From positions 2,046,001-2,110,000 of the forward strand of contig NZ_CP145608.1 in assembly GCF_036884295.1 (NCBI RefSeq): a stretch of DNA of 64,000 nt, written 5' to 3'. This document shows, one piece after another, positions 42,742 through 61,832 of the stretch. This DNA comes from Brochothrix thermosphacta DSM 20171 = FSL F6-1036. GTDB lineage: Bacteria; Bacillota; Bacilli; Lactobacillales; Listeriaceae. A program made the translations under genes and the position numbers. Numbering within the stretch: position 1 is the stretch's first letter; every line of letters starts with the position of its first letter. Under the pieces are notes generated by a model. That model was given only the letters and a program-made list of their open reading frames with translations. It made no database searches and was not told the origin of the DNA.

Positions 42742-45162
42742 TTATTTTTTATTATACGATTCATGTAGCATACGAATAGATTCTTCTTCTGAGTCTGCCT
42801 CAATCCCTAACTCTTTCATCACGCGTTTAACCTCATTAATATCTAAAGCCAATGTCGTTTCTGCTGGTGACGAAGGCACTGGTAGAGTAAGGATTTTAGT
42901 TACATAAGCTGCATTGCATGCTTCAATAAAACGGTTATAAAGAATGTTAGTTTCTCTTTGGAACGTCACTAATGGATCAATTTGCCCATAAGCTCTTAAT
43001 CCAATACCTTCCTTAATTGCCTCAACTTGATAAAGATAATCGATCCATTGTTCATCTATCGTTTCAATAAACATTTCACGCTCCATTTGATTAATTGAAT
43101 AAGCATTAAAACGCAAACGATTCTCATTATACCATTTCAGCATAAACGTTACACCCTCACGTTTACCCATATCAACTAGTTCATCGACCGGTAGTGGCAA
43201 AGCGATACCATCAAACAAATCAAAAATAGCAACTTTTTTTGCTTCATCTGTCTTTTCTTTTATAAATATCGTTGTCAAAATTTCTTCCATAATTGCTTCA
43301 GTAAAAGCTTTTGTTGTTGTCATATCTAAAATTTTGCGTCTTTCAGCATAAACTGTCTGACTTTGAACATGTAAAATTTCATCGTATTGCAACAATTGTT
43401 TACGCACATCAAAATTATGTGCTTCCATTGCTTCTTGAGCATTACGCATTAACTTTTTGATGAATTTACCTTTAAGTGGTTGATAGGTCAGTTCTCGTTT
43501 TTTTAATTTGTAGCGTTCCCATCGTTTACTATCAAATTGCTTCAGAAGCTCGTCTTCTAACGATAAAATAAATTTGCTGTAACCTGGATCACCACGACGG
43601 CCTGAACGACCAATTAATTGTAAATCAATGCGACGACTATCAAAACGAGAGGCTCCAATCACACATAAGCCACCGCGTTTTAAAGATGCTTGATCTAATT
43701 TAATATCTGTACCGCGACCTGCCATATTGGTTGCTATGGTCACCGTTCCTACAGTCCCAGCTTTTGATATAATAGCTGCTTCTAATCGATGATTTTTAGC
43801 ATTTAAAATGTTATACGGGATGCCTTCAATGTTAAGTAATTCCCCAAGCCACTCACTATCTTGAATAGAATTAGTACCTACTAAAGACGGTCTACCTTCT
43901 TTCAAATTGTGATAAACTTCTTGTACTATTGCTTTTCCTTGCTCTTCTCGTGTTCGATATATTTCCTCTGCTTTATCTTTACGATTTATTCTCATGTTGG
44001 TCGGGATGACCACAACATCCAAATTATAAATATTATGAAATTCTTCTGCCTCTGTTGATGCAGTTCCAGTCATACCAGATACTTTTTGATACATTCTAAA
44101 ATAGTTTTGAATCGTAATCGTTGCTAAAGTTGTTGATTCATAGTTAATTTCAACACTTTCTTTTGCTTCAAGCGCTTGATGAATACCATCATTATAACGA
44201 CGGCCTGGTATTGCTCGACCAGTATTTTCATCCACGATGACAACTTTACCATCCATTACAACATAGTTTTTATCCTTTTTCATTAAAATATGTGCTCTCA
44301 GAGCTGTCATTGTTGCGCGTATTAAATGTTGATTCTCTGAAGAAAACAAATCTTTCACTTGCCAAAAATACTCTGATTTTTCAATACCATTTTCTGACAA
44401 CCATACTGTATGATGAATTTCATCAAAATTATAGTCTGACTGATTAAATGTTGACAACAAGCGGTTGGCACGTTGATATAAAGATAAATCTTCTGTTTTA
44501 GTACTTGAGATAATTAACGGTGTCCGTGCTTCGTCAATTAGAATAGAGTCTGCTTCATCTAATAAAACAAAATCCAATCCAGTCTGAACACGATCTTCGT
44601 TGTTTTTTATCATATTATCTCGCAGATAATCAAAGCCGAATTCTGAAGCCGTGCCATAAATAACATCACCTTCATAAATCGCTTTTTTTTCTCCGATGGA
44701 TGCTTCAGCTATATTTAAAGTAACCGTTAAACCCATAAATTCAAGGATACGTCCAATTTCTTCCCGGTCTCTTTCAGCAAGATATGTATTTGCAGTCATA
44801 AGATGTACTTTATTCCCTTTTAAAACTTCTGAATACAATACAAATAATGATACGAGCGTCTTTCCTTCACCCGTTTTCATTTCAGCAATACAACCATCCT
44901 CGAGTGCAAGTGCTCCTATAAGCTGCACATAAGCCGCTTCAAAACCAATAACACGGTGGATCGCTTCACGCAGTAAGGCAAAAGATTTCACAAGATCATC
45001 CTCAGTTAAGGGTTGACCTTCTTTATATTTAATTCGCCAAAAGGCTGTTTGTTCACTAAATTCACTATCATCAAAATAAGTATAGAGTTTACTTTGCTTC
45101 AAAACACGACGGGCTAGACGGCGGTATTCTGTCATCTGTTTATTATGTTTACCAATGTTCAT
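42742..45162 (-). CDS. secA2: accessory Sec translocase ATPase SecA2
   Basis: An 806-residue DEAD-type motor for export of a subset of proteins. Walker A lies in AEMKTGEGKTLVSLFV; FVLLDEADSILIDEARTPLI is Walker B; TNMAGRGTDIKLD and LQLIGRSGRRGDPG are the second motor domain motifs. It is shorter than housekeeping SecA and lacks the C-terminal zinc-binding CxC region. In Listeria SecA2 exports p60/Iap and NamA, and here it is divergent from a p60-like gene, so the partnership is probably conserved (inference). No secY2 is present. AGGAGG precedes ATG 45162. Confidence 0.95.
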   Translation of the reverse strand: MNIGKHNKQMTEYRRLARRVLKQSKLYTYFDDSEFSEQTAFWRIKYKEGQPLTEDDLVKSFALLREAIHRVIGFEAAYVQLIGALALEDGCIAEMKTGEGKTLVSLFVLYSEVLKGNKVHLMTANTYLAERDREEIGRILEFMGLTVTLNIAEASIGEKKAIYEGDVIYGTASEFGFDYLRDNMIKNNEDRVQTGLDFVLLDEADSILIDEARTPLIISSTKTEDLSLYQRANRLLSTFNQSDYNFDEIHHTVWLSENGIEKSEYFWQVKDLFSSENQHLIRATMTALRAHILMKKDKNYVVMDGKVVIVDENTGRAIPGRRYNDGIHQALEAKESVEINYESTTLATITIQNYFRMYQKVSGMTGTASTEAEEFHNIYNLDVVVIPTNMRINRKDKAEEIYRTREEQGKAIVQEVYHNLKEGRPSLVGTNSIQDSEWLGELLNIEGIPYNILNAKNHRLEAAIISKAGTVGTVTIATNMAGRGTDIKLDQASLKRGGLCVIGASRFDSRRIDLQLIGRSGRRGDPGYSKFILSLEDELLKQFDSKRWERYKLKKRELTYQPLKGKFIKKLMRNAQEAMEAHNFDVRKQLLQYDEILHVQSQTVYAERRKILDMTTTKAFTEAIMEEILTTIFIKEKTDEAKKVAIFDLFDGIALPLPVDELVDMGKREGVTFMLKWYNENRLRFNAYSINQMEREMFIETIDEQWIDYLYQVEAIKEGIGLRAYGQIDPLVTFQRETNILYNRFIEACNAAYVTKILTLPVPSSPAETTLALDINEVKRVMKELGIEADSEEESIRMLHESYNKK

Positions 45163-45524
45163 AGTTTAATACCCTCCTGATTGCTACTCTTTCATTATAC
45201 AATGATTAAAATTTAAATGGTATTTTTATATTATAATATCTAATAACTTACCATTGTTGCATCAATAATTATACTTTTCAATACAATAATGCGATATAAC
45301 TCATAAATATATGACATATTATTCAATTTCAAGTCGAAATTAATTAGGTCTTAAGACCCTTAAATATTTCAAGTATGTGACATTCGTTGTAATTATGTTC
45401 TTTTCACTGTAGAATTAGTATGTAGATTGAATGTTATGATGAGATAGGTTTATTTCAAATTATTAGCATTACAATTATTTGTACATGAACACACTATTAC
45501 GAGCATGAAAGGGAGAGAGAAAAC
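45163..45524. promoter_or_regulatory. 362-bp divergent promoter region of secA2 and the p60-like gene
   Basis: No gene. AT-rich and presumably holds both promoters. A perfect 12-bp palindrome GGTCTTAAGACC sits at 45347-45358, about in the middle; it could be an operator shared by both genes. Confidence 0.5.
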
Positions 45525-47327
45525 ATGAAAAAATTAACGTTATCTTTAGCTTCAGCTAGTATCGCTGCAACATCTATTGTAGCACCAACAGCAGCGGCAG
45601 CCTCAACCGATATCACAGTTGAAAAGAACGATACACTTTGGGACTTGGCAAATAAACATAAAACAACCGTAAAAGATTTAAAAGAGATTAACAATTTAGA
45701 CTCAGATAATATCCAAATCGGTCAACAATTAAAAGTGGCACAAAATAAAGACACATATGTCGTTAAAAGTGGTGATTCTCTTTGGAAGATCGCTCAAGCA
45801 AACCATACTTCTGTTGAAGAATTAAAAAACATCAATAAGTTAACATCTAATACTATTTTTGTTAATCAAAAATTAGAGATACCAGGAATTGATTATGTAA
45901 TGGATACGACAGCTGTTGTTCAAAAAACATCAGACGTTTCAACCTCTGCACAAACTCCTGTTGCTGAAGAAGTAGCTCCTGTTGCTGAAGAAACTGCTCC
46001 TGTTGCTGAAGAAACTGCTCCTGTTGCTGAAAAAGCAGCTCCTGTTGCTGAAGAAGCAGCTCCTGTTGCTGAAGAAACTGCTCCTGTTGCTGAAGAAACT
46101 GCTCCAGCCGCTGAAGAAACTGCTCCTGTTTCTGAAGAAACTGCTCCAGCCGCTGAAGAAGCAGCTCCTGTTGCTGAAGAAACTGCTCCAGCCGCTGAAG
46201 AAGCAGCTCCTGTTGCTGAAGAAGTTGATACAAATGCTTCCACTTATGAAGTTAAAGCGGGTGATTCATTAAGTAAAATTGCTGATTTATTCAATACATC
46301 TGTGAATAAAATTGCCGCACTCAATGAATTAACAAATTCTGAAACTTTATCTGTCGGACAAGTTCTCGCTGTAAAAGGTGAAGTTAAAGCCCCTACAGTT
46401 TCAGAAACACCAAAAGAAACAAAACCTGTTGCCGAAGAAAAAACGGAAGCTACAGTTAATACTAATGCTTCAACTTACAAAGTTAATGCTGGTGATACAT
46501 TAGCAGTTATCGCTAGTCAATTTGGAACAACGACTTCTAAATTAGTCGCTCTTAATAACCTTTCAAATGCTAACTCGCTTACAGTAGGACAAACATTAAA
46601 AGTTAAAGGTTCAGTTCCAGCACCAACAGTTACTGCACCAAAACCTACACAAACAGTAGCTACACAAACACCTTCAACACAAACAGTAGCAAAACCTTCT
46701 GTATCAGCTTCAACTCATACTGTAAAATCTGGTGATTCATTAGGTAAAATCGCATCACAATATGGTGTATCTGTAAGTTATCTTGTTAACCGCAATAATC
46801 TTTCAAATGCTAACGATTTATCTGTCGGACAAGTACTTCAACTTAAAGGTGCTGCTTCATCATCAGTAACACCTAAACCAACTACACCTAAACCAACTAC
46901 ACCTACAACAACTTATAAACCTTCTAAGCCTTCTGCACCTTCAACAAGTGGCTTAAGTTTTAATACACTGTTTAGTTTTGCTCAACAATTCAGCGGTACT
47001 CCTTATGTTTGGGGCGGTACAACACCATCTGGATTTGATTGTTCAGGATTTACACAGTATGTTTACGGAAACTCAGGTGTTTCGTTAAACCGTACTGCTG
47101 GAGATCAAATGAACCAATCAACTAAAATTTCTGAAGGCCAAGCTAAACCCGGAGATTTAGTATTCTTCTCTTACAACGGTGGTTCTTCAATCGATCATGT
47201 TGGTATTTACATGGGTAACGGCCAAATGATCAATGCTCAAAATAATGGTGTTAAAATTGACAACATTCACGGAAACGGCTGGGGCGAGTTCCTTGTTGGA
47301 TTCGGAACTGTTGGTAACTTTAACTAA
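45525..47327 (+). CDS. p60/Iap-like secreted peptidoglycan hydrolase (five LysM + NlpC/P60)
   Basis: 600 residues. Signal peptide to about residue 26 (PTAAAA). LysM domains at about 29-72, 77-121, 241-285, 318-362 and 398-442 (for example VVKSGDSLWKIAQANHTSVE). Residues 145-235 are a PVAEETA heptad repeat. A Pro/Thr/Lys linker follows, then NlpC/P60 from about 475 with Cys506 (FDCSGF), His558 (DHVGIY) and Asn570 as catalytic triad. NlpC/P60 enzymes cut D-Glu to mDAP bonds. Listeria p60 has two LysM plus an SH3 domain; here the SH3 is missing and there are five LysM. Likely a SecA2 substrate and needed for daughter-cell separation (inference). Confidence 0.93.
   Translation: MKKLTLSLASASIAATSIVAPTAAAASTDITVEKNDTLWDLANKHKTTVKDLKEINNLDSDNIQIGQQLKVAQNKDTYVVKSGDSLWKIAQANHTSVEELKNINKLTSNTIFVNQKLEIPGIDYVMDTTAVVQKTSDVSTSAQTPVAEEVAPVAEETAPVAEETAPVAEKAAPVAEEAAPVAEETAPVAEETAPAAEETAPVSEETAPAAEEAAPVAEETAPAAEEAAPVAEEVDTNASTYEVKAGDSLSKIADLFNTSVNKIAALNELTNSETLSVGQVLAVKGEVKAPTVSETPKETKPVAEEKTEATVNTNASTYKVNAGDTLAVIASQFGTTTSKLVALNNLSNANSLTVGQTLKVKGSVPAPTVTAPKPTQTVATQTPSTQTVAKPSVSASTHTVKSGDSLGKIASQYGVSVSYLVNRNNLSNANDLSVGQVLQLKGAASSSVTPKPTTPKPTTPTTTYKPSKPSAPSTSGLSFNTLFSFAQQFSGTPYVWGGTTPSGFDCSGFTQYVYGNSGVSLNRTAGDQMNQSTKISEGQAKPGDLVFFSYNGGSSIDHVGIYMGNGQMINAQNNGVKIDNIHGNGWGEFLVGFGTVGNFN
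45957..46229 (+). repeat. in-gene 21-bp tandem repeat (13 copies)
   Basis: Thirteen contiguous units encoding PVAEETA-type heptads (variants PVAEKAA, PAAEETA, PVSEETA). Synonymous variation is low, so copy number is likely unstable between strains. The repeat forms a negatively charged, Pro-rich spacer between LysM2 and LysM3. Confidence 0.9.
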
Positions 47328-47342
47328 ACTAAATTATTATTC

Positions 47343-47372
47343 AAAAGCCACACATAATGTGTGGCTTTTTTT
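47343..47372 (+). terminator. terminator of the p60-like gene
   Basis: Perfect stem AAAAGCCACAC-ataa-style loop-GTGTGGCTTTT with T7, 15 bp after the stop codon. Confidence 0.9.
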
Positions 47373-47377
47373 GTTGC

Positions 47378-47581
47378 TATCATCGTTGTAAATTTATTTG
47401 CTTACGAGGATAGTATGGGACGGAGCGAAAGCGAGTACCACTCCTTTGTTATCATCGTTGTAAATTTATTTGCTTACGAGGATAGTATGGGTGCTGACAT
47501 TGTTGCGAATACATGAGCTTACAAAGACAGTATGGGTGCTGACATTGTTGCGAATATATGGGCTTACAAAGACAGTATGGG
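47378..47581. repeat. 72-bp and 45-bp tandem duplications next to the minisatellite
   Basis: An identical 42-bp segment occurs at 47378-47419 and 47450-47491 (period 72). It is followed by a 45-bp period (47491-47535 and 47536-47580, two mismatches, starting GTGCTGACATTGTTGCGAAT). The parts share GAGTACCAC and CCTTTTGTTA with the 27-bp units downstream. No start or ribosome site supports coding. Confidence 0.85.
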
Positions 47582-47601
47582 ACGGAAATTTCCAAAGGAA
47601 A

Positions 47602-48267
47602 TTGAGTACCACACCTTTTGTTAGTTGCTTGAGTACCATTCCTTTTGTTAGTTGCTGAATACCACACATTTTGGTAGTTGCTGAATACCACACATTTTGG
47701 TAGTTGCTTGAGTACCACACCTTATGCTAGTTGCTTGAGTACCACACCTTTTGTTAGTTGCTTGAATACCATTCCTTTTGCTAGTTGCTTGAGTACCACA
47801 TCTTTTGCTAGTTGCTTGAGTACCATTCCTTTTGTTAGTTGCTTGAGTACCATTCCTTTTGTTAGTTGCTTGAATACCGTTCCTTTTGTTAGTTGCTTGA
47901 ATACCATTCCTTTTGCTAGTTGCTTGAGTACCACATCTTTTGCTAGTTGCTTGAGTACCATTCCTTTTGTTAGTTGCTTGAATACCATTCCTTTTGCTAG
48001 TTGCTTGAGTACCACATCTTTTGCTAGTTGCTTGAATACCATTCCTTTTGTTAGTTGATTGAGTACCACACCTTTTGGTAGTTGATTGAGTACCACACCT
48101 TATGCTAGTTGCTTGAGTACCATTCCTTTTGTTAGTTGCTTGAGTACCATTCCTTTTGTTAGTTGCTGAATACCACACATTTTGGTAGTTGCTTGAGTAC
48201 CACACCTTATGCTAGTTGCTTGAGTATAGTTCCTTTTGTTAGTTGCTTGGGTACCGTTCCTTTTGTT
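47602..48267. repeat. 27-bp minisatellite, about 25 units, with 81-bp higher-order units
   Basis: Contiguous units of the form TTGCTTGAGTACCATTCC plus TTTTGTTAG. Variable sites are GAG/GAA, ATTCC/ACACC/ACATC and T/C/G before TAG. Three units (near 47659, 47685 and 48170) are 26 bp long. Blocks 47764-47844 and 47899-47979 are identical over 81 bp, and 47980-48060 differs at two positions. There are no unique spacers, so it is not CRISPR. Open frames exist on both strands only because 27 is divisible by three; the 26-bp units break them. Position: after the p60 gene terminator and before an acetyltransferase gene. Confidence 0.92.
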
Positions 48268-48306
48268 AATAATGTATGATTCCGTATGCCGACGTATTCT
48301 TTTGTG

Positions 48307-48342
48307 AAAAATAGGCATCAGTGAAACTTCACCCACACCATA
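48307..48342 (-). repeat. 36-bp intergenic motif, copy 1
   Basis: 32 of 36 bases match a second copy at 52505-52540, same orientation. On the minus strand it reads as YGVGEVSLMPIF, preceded by an open frame from 48381. It also contains GTGA-N4-TCAC. Function unknown. Confidence 0.7.
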
Positions 48343-48382
48343 GATAGAATCTTTAAACACAGTCATTGTAAATGATAACACT

Positions 48383-48437
48383 AAAAAAACAGACTATCTA
48401 TTGACGAATAAAAATTCGTAATACATAATCTGTCTAT
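48383..48437 (-). terminator. terminator of the lactonase-acetyltransferase operon
   Basis: A long imperfect stem on the minus strand (AGACAGATTATGTATTACGAAT against ATTCGTCAATAGATAGTCTG, split here as two arms) followed by T7. Confidence 0.75.
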
Positions 48438-48473
48438 TAATTGAAACACTAACATGTTCTCTATTTATTAAAC

Positions 48474-48947
48474 TTAGAGAGCTTTACTTAATGTGATATT
48501 CTCTTCCGTCTCAGTTAGTACAGAGTAACCTAATTTTTTCCAGAATGAAATACCAACGTCGTAACTTGATGGAAACGTAATATCAAATTGCTTCCCACCA
48601 TCATCTTTTGCCCATTGAAGAGCAACTTTTTCTAGTAGTTCATCAAGACCTTCTTCAACTACATCTTCAGCAATAACTAACCATTCTATTGTAAAATGTG
48701 TACTTTCATTTGGATTTTGTAAAATATCCAACAAGCCTTTTGCATTGTCTTCACCGTCCAAAAGTGCAAACGTATACTTATTGAAATTCGGTTTATTCGT
48801 TCCAAGAACTAGTTCGATATCCGCTTCAGTAAATAAACGTTTTTTTGTTTCTTTAAAATAATTAGGTGCTTTTTCAAATACAGATCGTACTGTATTTTCA
48901 TCTGCTGGATGTAAAACTTGGATATGGAAACCTTGATAATTTGACAT
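48474..48947 (-). CDS. GNAT-like hypothetical protein
   Basis: A 157-residue protein. MSNYQGFHIQVLHPADENTV at the start and DVGISFWKKLGYSVLTETEE near the end resemble the first and last parts of a GNAT fold, but the acetyl-CoA loop (Q/R-x-x-G-x-G/A) is not evident, so activity is doubtful. It is directly downstream of the lactonase gene (12-bp gap) on the same strand. The substrate is unknown. Confidence 0.65.
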   Translation of the reverse strand: MSNYQGFHIQVLHPADENTVRSVFEKAPNYFKETKKRLFTEADIELVLGTNKPNFNKYTFALLDGEDNAKGLLDILQNPNESTHFTIEWLVIAEDVVEEGLDELLEKVALQWAKDDGGKQFDITFPSSYDVGISFWKKLGYSVLTETEENITLSKAL

Positions 48948-48959
48948 AGAGAGACTCCT

Positions 48960-50009
48960 TTAGTTAATGTTATTTAAAAATGATACTGCCACTGTTTCAG
49001 GGACACTCACTTCTTTACTGACTGCTGTTAATTCACCAGATTCTGCATTAATTTTATACGATGTTGCAGTTCCTGTATCCTCATTTGCTGCAATCAGAAC
49101 AGTTCCTGCTGCATTGACATTAATATCTCGTGGACCAACTCCGAATGATGAAATAAATTGTTTAACTGACAACGTGCCATCCGCTGCGATATCAAAAGCA
49201 GTAATCCCATCATAACCACGGTTTGAAACATATAATGTTTTTTCGTTTGGCGTAATACGGATAGCTGAACCTTTGTTAGCTCCTTTAAAATCTTCAGGGA
49301 GTGAGTAAATTGTTTGTTTTACTACAAGACCACCTGTCTCTTTGTTGAATTTAGCAACAATTACTTCGTTAGATAACTCTGTCATGATATACACTGTTTC
49401 ACCATCTTTTGTGAAAACAAGATGACGAGGGCCACTTCCTGGCTTAACAGATAGTATAGCAACACGTTCTAATTCCGCTCCATTTACTTTATATGAATAA
49501 ATCTCATCCGTTCCTAAATCTACACCTAAGACAAATTTACCATCAGGTGTTAAGTCTGAATAGTGAGCATAAGCTTTATCTTGACGTTCAGGATTAATGC
49601 TATTACCTTCATGTGCATCTCTTGAAACCACACGATCAATTGATCCATCTTCATTCAAAGCGACTGAATCAATTAAACCACGGTGATAGTTTGCTGTATA
49701 CAATACATTACCTGCATTATTAATTGCAACATAACAAGGTGGTGCTCCCTCTTCTGAAATATTATTTAATGGTGTTAATGTTGCATCTTCATTAATTTTA
49801 AAAGATTGAATTCCACCTTTACCATCTACCTTAGCAATTGAATAAAGGTAACTATTAGTAGGATCAATTGTTAAATAGGTCGGATTATCTACCTTACCTG
49901 CAACAGCAACATTGCTTAATTCAGCTGTTTCATTATTAACCGTCGCTGTGTAAATGCCTTGGCTTGCTTTTTTTGTGTATGTTCCAAAATAAACGCGTTC
50001 ATTACTCAT
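48960..50009 (-). CDS. lactonase-family beta-propeller protein (YkgB/Pgl type)
   Basis: A 349-residue seven-bladed propeller. VYFGTYTKKASQGIYTATV, PPCYVAINNAGNVLYTANY, GPRHLVFTKDGETVYIMTE and GPRDINVNAAGTVLIAANE are repeated blade motifs of the lactonase family. Members include 6-phosphogluconolactonase of the propeller type in the oxidative pentose phosphate pathway. That role is plausible here but not proven, since no zwf or gnd is nearby. Likely cytoplasmic: no signal peptide. Confidence 0.9.
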   Translation of the reverse strand: MSNERVYFGTYTKKASQGIYTATVNNETAELSNVAVAGKVDNPTYLTIDPTNSYLYSIAKVDGKGGIQSFKINEDATLTPLNNISEEGAPPCYVAINNAGNVLYTANYHRGLIDSVALNEDGSIDRVVSRDAHEGNSINPERQDKAYAHYSDLTPDGKFVLGVDLGTDEIYSYKVNGAELERVAILSVKPGSGPRHLVFTKDGETVYIMTELSNEVIVAKFNKETGGLVVKQTIYSLPEDFKGANKGSAIRITPNEKTLYVSNRGYDGITAFDIAADGTLSVKQFISSFGVGPRDINVNAAGTVLIAANEDTGTATSYKINAESGELTAVSKEVSVPETVAVSFLNNIN

Positions 50010-61592: not shown

Positions 61593-61597
61593 AGTTT

Positions 61598-61713
<116 letters not shown>

Positions 61714-61716
61714 CTT

Positions 61717-61832
<116 letters not shown>

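What the first reader, a model, noticed from the sequence alone, without database searches (positions are those of the whole stretch)
47602..48267. 27-bp intergenic minisatellite with 81-bp higher-order units next to the p60 gene
About 25 contiguous 27-bp units follow the p60-like gene terminator. Unit variants are not random: a three-unit block (81 bp) is identical at 47764-47844 and 47899-47979 and nearly identical at 47980-48060, showing amplification in blocks. Three 26-bp units break any reading frame, and there is no ribosome site, so it is probably not a protein gene. Long non-coding satellites of this kind are rare in small Firmicutes genomes; it could be a protein-binding array or a hypervariable typing locus.
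Basis: partly seen in the sequence, partly recalled or inferred. Interest (0 to 1): 0.6.

Follow-up and report, generated by a model that had tools for sequence, protein, structure and literature searches.

The report
Overgrown tail of dispersed hairpin repeat
The 27-bp array beside the p60 gene is the 25-fold amplified tail of a small non-coding repeat element that is scattered over about 52 places in this genome, mostly behind genes, and whose two-hairpin core also sits, usually as one copy, right behind the ribosomal protein gene rpsI in about one in seven of the related genomes searched.

Summary
In detail: 25 units of 27 bp (three of 26) lie at 47602-48273, with block duplications and no sign of a protein gene. 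The reading as a free-standing satellite is incomplete. The 230 bp between the p60 terminator and the array hold four P hairpins (about 45 bp) and two C hairpins; the array starts inside the 3' arm of the second C hairpin. The same P-C-tail element occurs in about 52 clusters (74 C and 129 P hits) across this 2.56-Mb genome, probably Brochothrix thermosphacta, mostly downstream of a co-oriented gene. Both hairpins show clear compensatory changes. Tails elsewhere reach at most 6.5 copies; this one is the outlier. The array folds less well than shuffled sequence and lies between two convergent terminators, so slippage or unequal exchange of a silent tail is the likeliest origin. Unexpectedly, a covariance model of C hits 56 of 395 genomes of the order, mostly once; of 30 loci inspected nearly all lie directly after rpsI or an rpsI remnant left by an integrated island. 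No Rfam family matches it. This genome also has rpsI-type copies at 828 and 834 kb, the second beside an rpsI fragment. Strain variation of this array could not be tested.

The parts
45525..47327 (+). p60-like secreted hydrolase gene (LysM repeats + NlpC/P60), the upstream neighbour
   Evidence: ORF; Pfam LysM 6e-76, NLPC_P60 6e-35
47343..47369 (+). intrinsic terminator of the p60-like gene
   Evidence: 12-bp stem followed by T run; folding z -5.5
47374..47419 (+). P hairpin module 1, directly after the terminator T run
   Evidence: covariance model R1 hit; folds to the consensus
47414..47446 (+). C hairpin module 1, short type (GCGAAAGC)
   Evidence: covariance model R2 hit, 52.9 bits
47446..47491 (+). 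P hairpin module 2
   Evidence: R1 hit
47491..47536 (+). P hairpin module 3
   Evidence: R1 hit; 45-bp tandem repeat
47536..47581 (+). P hairpin module 4
   Evidence: R1 hit; 45-bp tandem repeat
47576..47617 (+). C hairpin module 2, long type (AATTTCCAAAGGAAATT); its 3' arm is the start of the array
   Evidence: R2 hit, 55.3 bits; alignment A2
47602..48273 (+). amplified tail: 25 units of 27 bp (three of 26), core TTGAGTACCANNCCTTTTG
   Evidence: TRF; unit split
47747..47846 (+). first copy of the longest exact repeat inside the array (100 bp)
47882..47981 (+). second copy of the 100-bp exact repeat, 135 bp (5 units) downstream
48378..48445 (-). terminator-like hairpin with T run of the convergent gene, closing the interval
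   Evidence: folding z -6.6
48474..48947 (-). convergent neighbour gene (157 aa, no Pfam match)

Best explanation
The array is the overgrown 3' tail of one copy of a dispersed, non-coding, modular repeat element. Each element consists of one or more P hairpins, a C hairpin (TATGGGACGGA-hairpin-GAGTACCANTCCTT) and often a tail that repeats the 3' arm of C plus a short spacer (shown). Behind p60 the tail has grown to 25 units by replication slippage or unequal exchange, partly in blocks of several units (inferred from unit order). The element is a non-autonomous small interspersed repeat that accumulates downstream of genes, where it does little harm (placement shown, cause inferred). Its core is homologous to a conserved two-hairpin structure that lies between the rpsI stop codon and its terminator in many genomes of the order (shown); the family here probably arose from such a unit brought in by an rpsI-targeting island (inferred). 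The array itself most likely has no function (inferred).
For: Dispersal: blastn finds 43 places in the own genome and none in 20 relatives; the pattern TATGGGACGNA occurs 68 times against 2 for the reversed control; R2 finds 74 C and R1 129 P modules in 52 clusters. Shared make-up and tails at other loci: tail units of 23-45 bp, up to 6.5 copies, same GAGTACC core. The array begins inside the C module. Compensatory changes: P, 89 cells changed on both sides against 36 in shuffles and 4-16 in slid controls; C, 98.7% of cells paired, 37 against 14 and 0-4. Placement: upstream neighbour co-oriented in 38 of 48, convergent 19 against divergent 3. Array less structured than shuffles on both strands (z +3.7, +5.7) and enclosed by convergent terminators. 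rpsI link: 56 of 395 genomes, rpsI 3' end just upstream, covariation, rpsI-type copies at 828 and 834 kb in the own genome.
Against: No mobiliser was found: no Y1 transposase and no reverse transcriptase; other transposases were not searched. No target-site duplication or clear terminal inverted repeat could be shown, so mobility is inferred from copy number and patchy distribution only. Lack of function of the array is inferred from position and folding, not measured. The sense-over-antisense bias between tandem genes is weak (19 against 7, p 0.03).
Confidence: 0.85

Rival explanations
1. The array is a functional protein-binding or regulatory array (for example a chromosome-organising or titration site) selected for its copy number.
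For: The core GAGTACC is well conserved across units and loci; the array is uninterrupted over 672 bp.
Against: Core conservation is already explained by descent from the C hairpin; other loci have only 2-6 copies with different spacers; it lies in a convergent, doubly terminated interval; no such array in relatives.
Confidence: 0.07
2. The array is transcribed as a 3' extension or antisense RNA that regulates p60 or the convergent gene.
For: Elements are mostly in sense behind genes, and the P and C hairpins covary, as expected for RNA.
Against: A strong terminator precedes the element here; the array itself folds less than shuffles on both strands; promoter-like matches are at chance level.
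Confidence: 0.06
3. The array is a repeat-protein gene.
For: A 185-aa frame is open on the minus strand.
Against: 26-bp units shift the frame; open frames follow from a unit without stops; no Pfam match; homologous tails elsewhere have periods of 23, 29, 42 and 45 bp, of which 23 and 29 are not multiples of 3.
Confidence: 0.01
4. The copies of the P-C family come from gene conversion and duplication among an older set of 3' elements more than from new insertions.
For: At the rpsD locus two strains share the flank and terminator but carry different P and C modules, as conversion between copies would give; P, C and whole P-C units are also tandemly duplicated.
Against: The other species of the genus and the other family members searched lack the family, so new sites were probably filled within this lineage.
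Confidence: 0.25

Closest known systems
BOX elements of Streptococcus pneumoniae (PMC3049150)
   Same: Modular small interspersed repeats (125 elements, 422 modules), intergenic, with hairpin structure, variable number of one internal module, enriched between convergent genes, nearly restricted to one species group.
   Different: No sequence comparison was made; BOX amplifies the internal B module, here P, whole P-C units and above all the 3' tail are amplified; BOX has terminal inverted repeats and target duplications according to the paper, not shown here.
BrickBuilt, a minisatellite inside a MITE of Porphyromonas gingivalis (PMC4596501)
   Same: A 23-bp spacer-less minisatellite as part of a dispersed intergenic element with leader and tail parts.
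   Different: There the minisatellite is a standing part of the element (19 copies); here large expansion is seen at one locus. Terminal inverted repeats not found here.
rpsI-targeting islands: IMESag-rpsI (PMC5090054) and McRImecD (PMC5341023)
   Same: Integration at the rpsI 3' end, leaving an rpsI fragment; the P-C structure lies immediately beyond that site in several genomes, with a tyrosine-type integrase gene next to rpsI in two of them.
   Different: The passages read of those papers describe the islands and a 61-bp core att site, not a two-hairpin structure; P-C is also present behind intact rpsI.
REP/BIME elements with RAYT transposases (own knowledge)
   Same: Extragenic palindromes in many copies.
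   Different: No Y1 transposase in this genome.

Membership tests
Small interspersed repeats of the BOX kind | Dispersed intergenic copies in one genome | tested here: met
   52 clusters
Small interspersed repeats of the BOX kind | Modular build with variable copy number of modules | tested here: met
   module strings PC to PCPPCPPPC; tandem arrays
Small interspersed repeats of the BOX kind | Conserved hairpin structure | tested here: met
   covariation
Small interspersed repeats of the BOX kind | Terminal inverted repeats and target-site duplication | tested here: inconclusive
   element ends are ragged on inspection; no empty orthologous site available
BOX family proper (S. pneumoniae) | Homology to boxA, boxB, boxC | not tested
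   no BOX sequence was aligned
REP/BIME (RAYT-mobilised) | Y1 transposase in the genome | tested here: not met
   PF01797 absent
Known RNA families (Rfam 15) | Match to an Rfam model | tested here: not met
   none in window 44000-50000; only the L13 leader near the rpsI loci
VNTR/MLVA locus | Unit number differs between strains | not testable with these tools
   one genome per species held; no array unit in viral contigs

The most novel reading that the evidence does not exclude
The P-C pair is an undescribed structured element of the rpsI 3' region of Lactobacillales (a 3'-UTR RNA, or a folded single-strand DNA site used at the rpsI attachment site) that was carried by rpsI-targeting islands into an ancestor of this species and there became a multicopy genomic parasite, with tails that turn into minisatellites.
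Probability: 0.35. Interest if true: 0.75.

Novelty: new variant of a known kind. Interest (0 to 1): 0.5.

Why it matters
It turns an isolated minisatellite into part of a family with a traceable origin: a conserved two-hairpin structure at a well-known island insertion site (rpsI), which apparently multiplied in one species. This gives a testable case of a gene-end structure becoming a genomic parasite, a candidate RNA family missing from Rfam, and a set of likely variable loci for typing what is probably a meat-spoilage bacterium.

Tried and rejected
Plasmid search with the array and flank, phage search with the flank: no match. Sister species and other family members by DNA: no match; by C model: none above noise in the family. 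Rfam on the window and on rpsI loci: nothing for P-C. Y1 transposase and reverse transcriptase as mobiliser: absent. p60 protein as a bait for other strains in genome contigs: only remote relatives. Viral contigs with array unit, P and rpsI-type C patterns: none; a C pattern gave one prophage contig. A synonymous/non-synonymous test on unit pairs was not possible (no pairs of distinct 27-bp units with a single difference). I first suspected that the conserved peptide upstream of the G028 and G016 copies was a transposase end; it is the C-terminus of ribosomal protein S9. Papers searched for an earlier description of these repeats or of an rpsI 3' structure: none seen.

Full report
CHECK OF THE OBSERVATION. 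The array is real: TRF finds 47602-48268, period 27, 24.8 copies, 87% matches. Split into units there are 25, of 13 kinds, three of them 26 bp long. The longest exact repeat is 100 bp (47747 and 47882, five units apart), and units 2-5 recur nearly unchanged at units 21-23. Repeated blocks are commoner than in shuffled unit orders (p about 0.005).

WHAT LIES BESIDE IT. The p60-like gene (LysM and NlpC/P60) ends in a terminator at 47343-47369. Between this and the array lie six hairpin modules: P (47374-47419), C (47414-47446), P, P, P (47446-47581) and C (47576-47617). The first array unit is part of the 3' arm of the last C hairpin. On the other side the convergent gene has its own terminator-like hairpin (48378-48445, z -6.6). 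The array is thus in a doubly terminated interval.

A DISPERSED FAMILY. Blastn with the flank and array finds 43 places in the own genome and none in 20 relatives, including the one other species of the genus held. The motif TATGGGACGNA occurs 68 times against 2 for its reversed control. Covariance models built here find 74 C and 129 P modules, in 52 clusters. Module strings range from PC to PCPPCPPPC. The genome is one contig of 2.56 Mb. I take it for Brochothrix thermosphacta because the only congener held (130 contigs, 85% complete, 2.4 Mb) resembles the 128-contig B. campestris assembly described in PMC12562394 and the size fits; this is inference.

STRUCTURE. The P alignment (65 sequences) gives 89 cells with changes on both sides of a pair, against 36 in shuffles and 4-16 in slid controls. 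The C alignment has 98.7% of cells paired and 37 double changes against 14 and 0-4. C occurs with a short stem (GCGAAAGC) or a long one (AATTGCnnnnGCAATT). The array in contrast folds worse than shuffles on both strands (z +3.7 and +5.7).

PLACEMENT. In 38 of 48 clusters with sequence the upstream neighbour is co-oriented with the element; 19 lie between convergent and 3 between divergent genes; between tandem genes 19 are sense and 7 antisense. Gene calls were simple ORFs, so single rows may be wrong. Many elements begin at the T run of a terminator or at a stop codon.

TAILS ELSEWHERE. Other clusters have tails with units of 23, 29, 42 or 45 bp built on the same core, in 2 to 6.5 copies; P modules reach 6 copies and whole P-C units 3.5. 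The array behind p60 is the extreme of a common behaviour. Slippage or unequal exchange is inferred from the unit order.

VARIATION BETWEEN STRAINS. One viral contig (L096) carries a prophage joined to the 3' end of rpsD. There the rpsD end and terminator equal those of the own genome, but the following element has a different first P, the short instead of the long C stem, and another tail. The source strain is unnamed; near identity of the flank suggests the same or a very close species. The genes further downstream differ. So module content changes between strains at what looks like one locus. The p60 array itself could not be compared.

THE rpsI LINK. The C model hits 56 of 395 genomes of the order, in 23 of 80 genera, mostly once, never more than 5 times outside the own genome, and one further genome outside the order among 398 sampled from the class, where rpsI sequence again lies next to it (read). 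In 25 of 30 loci inspected an rpsI 3' end lies within 120 bases upstream: 18 were scored full-length and 7 fragments by a simple stop-free test; four of the other five keep a short piece of the sequence around TCAAAACGTTAA (read). The order is rpsI stop codon, P, C, and as a rule a terminator. 25 pairs were tested on 29 sequences: 97.1% of cells paired, 32 double changes against 8 in shuffles and 3-6 in slid controls. Fragments mark islands integrated at rpsI: in G028 and G016 an integrase gene stands near intact rpsI and the fragment with P-C lies at the far end. Such islands are known (PMC5090054, PMC5341023). No Rfam family covers P-C. In the own genome native rpsI has no P-C, but an rpsI fragment followed by P-C lies at 834 kb behind a long ORF, and a copy at 828 kb matches the rpsI type over its whole 128 bases including the terminator. 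Origin of the family from such a unit is therefore likely but not shown.

MECHANISM AND LIMITS. No Y1 transposase or reverse transcriptase was found; the mobiliser and the element ends are unknown. Closest known kinds are BOX repeats (PMC3049150) and the minisatellite-bearing BrickBuilt element (PMC4596501). My verdict: the array is the overgrown, probably functionless tail of a non-autonomous interspersed repeat; the more interesting object is the P-C core and its rpsI relatives.

Noticed in passing
L098:1440-1660 (own genome, about 834.0-834.2 kb): rpsI 3' fragment (38 codons, 68% identical to native S9) followed by a P-C unit, behind a long ORF; looks like the remnant of an rpsI-targeting island in a genome whose native rpsI is intact.
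   Followed up: partly
L140-L142 (G149:C4, 60-110 kb): Five C modules on one strand within 36 kb, several directly after rpsI 3' ends: looks like tandem rpsI islands.
   Followed up: partly
L101: Vagococcus plasmid with an rpsI 3' fragment close behind Qat anti-phage genes; rpsI fragments also on many Enterococcus plasmids.
   Followed up: no
L148, L149 (G168): Tandem P-C units in two intergenic regions without rpsI, with varying C stems that keep their pairing: another lineage with modest spread.
   Followed up: no
L082:2438-2822 and L074:4199-4418: 97-bp tandem repeats (4.0 and 2.3 copies) of different sequence near P-C elements; a separate repeat family.
   Followed up: no
window 45955-46224: 21-bp coding repeats (APVAEET type) inside the p60-like gene, with a higher-order 84-bp period.
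   Followed up: no
window 61596-61822: 119-bp repeat in 1.9 copies that reads like tandem 5S rRNA genes.
   Followed up: no
L096:3100-4660: Prophage integrated at the 3' end of rpsD with its integrase next to the junction, in another strain.
   Followed up: partly
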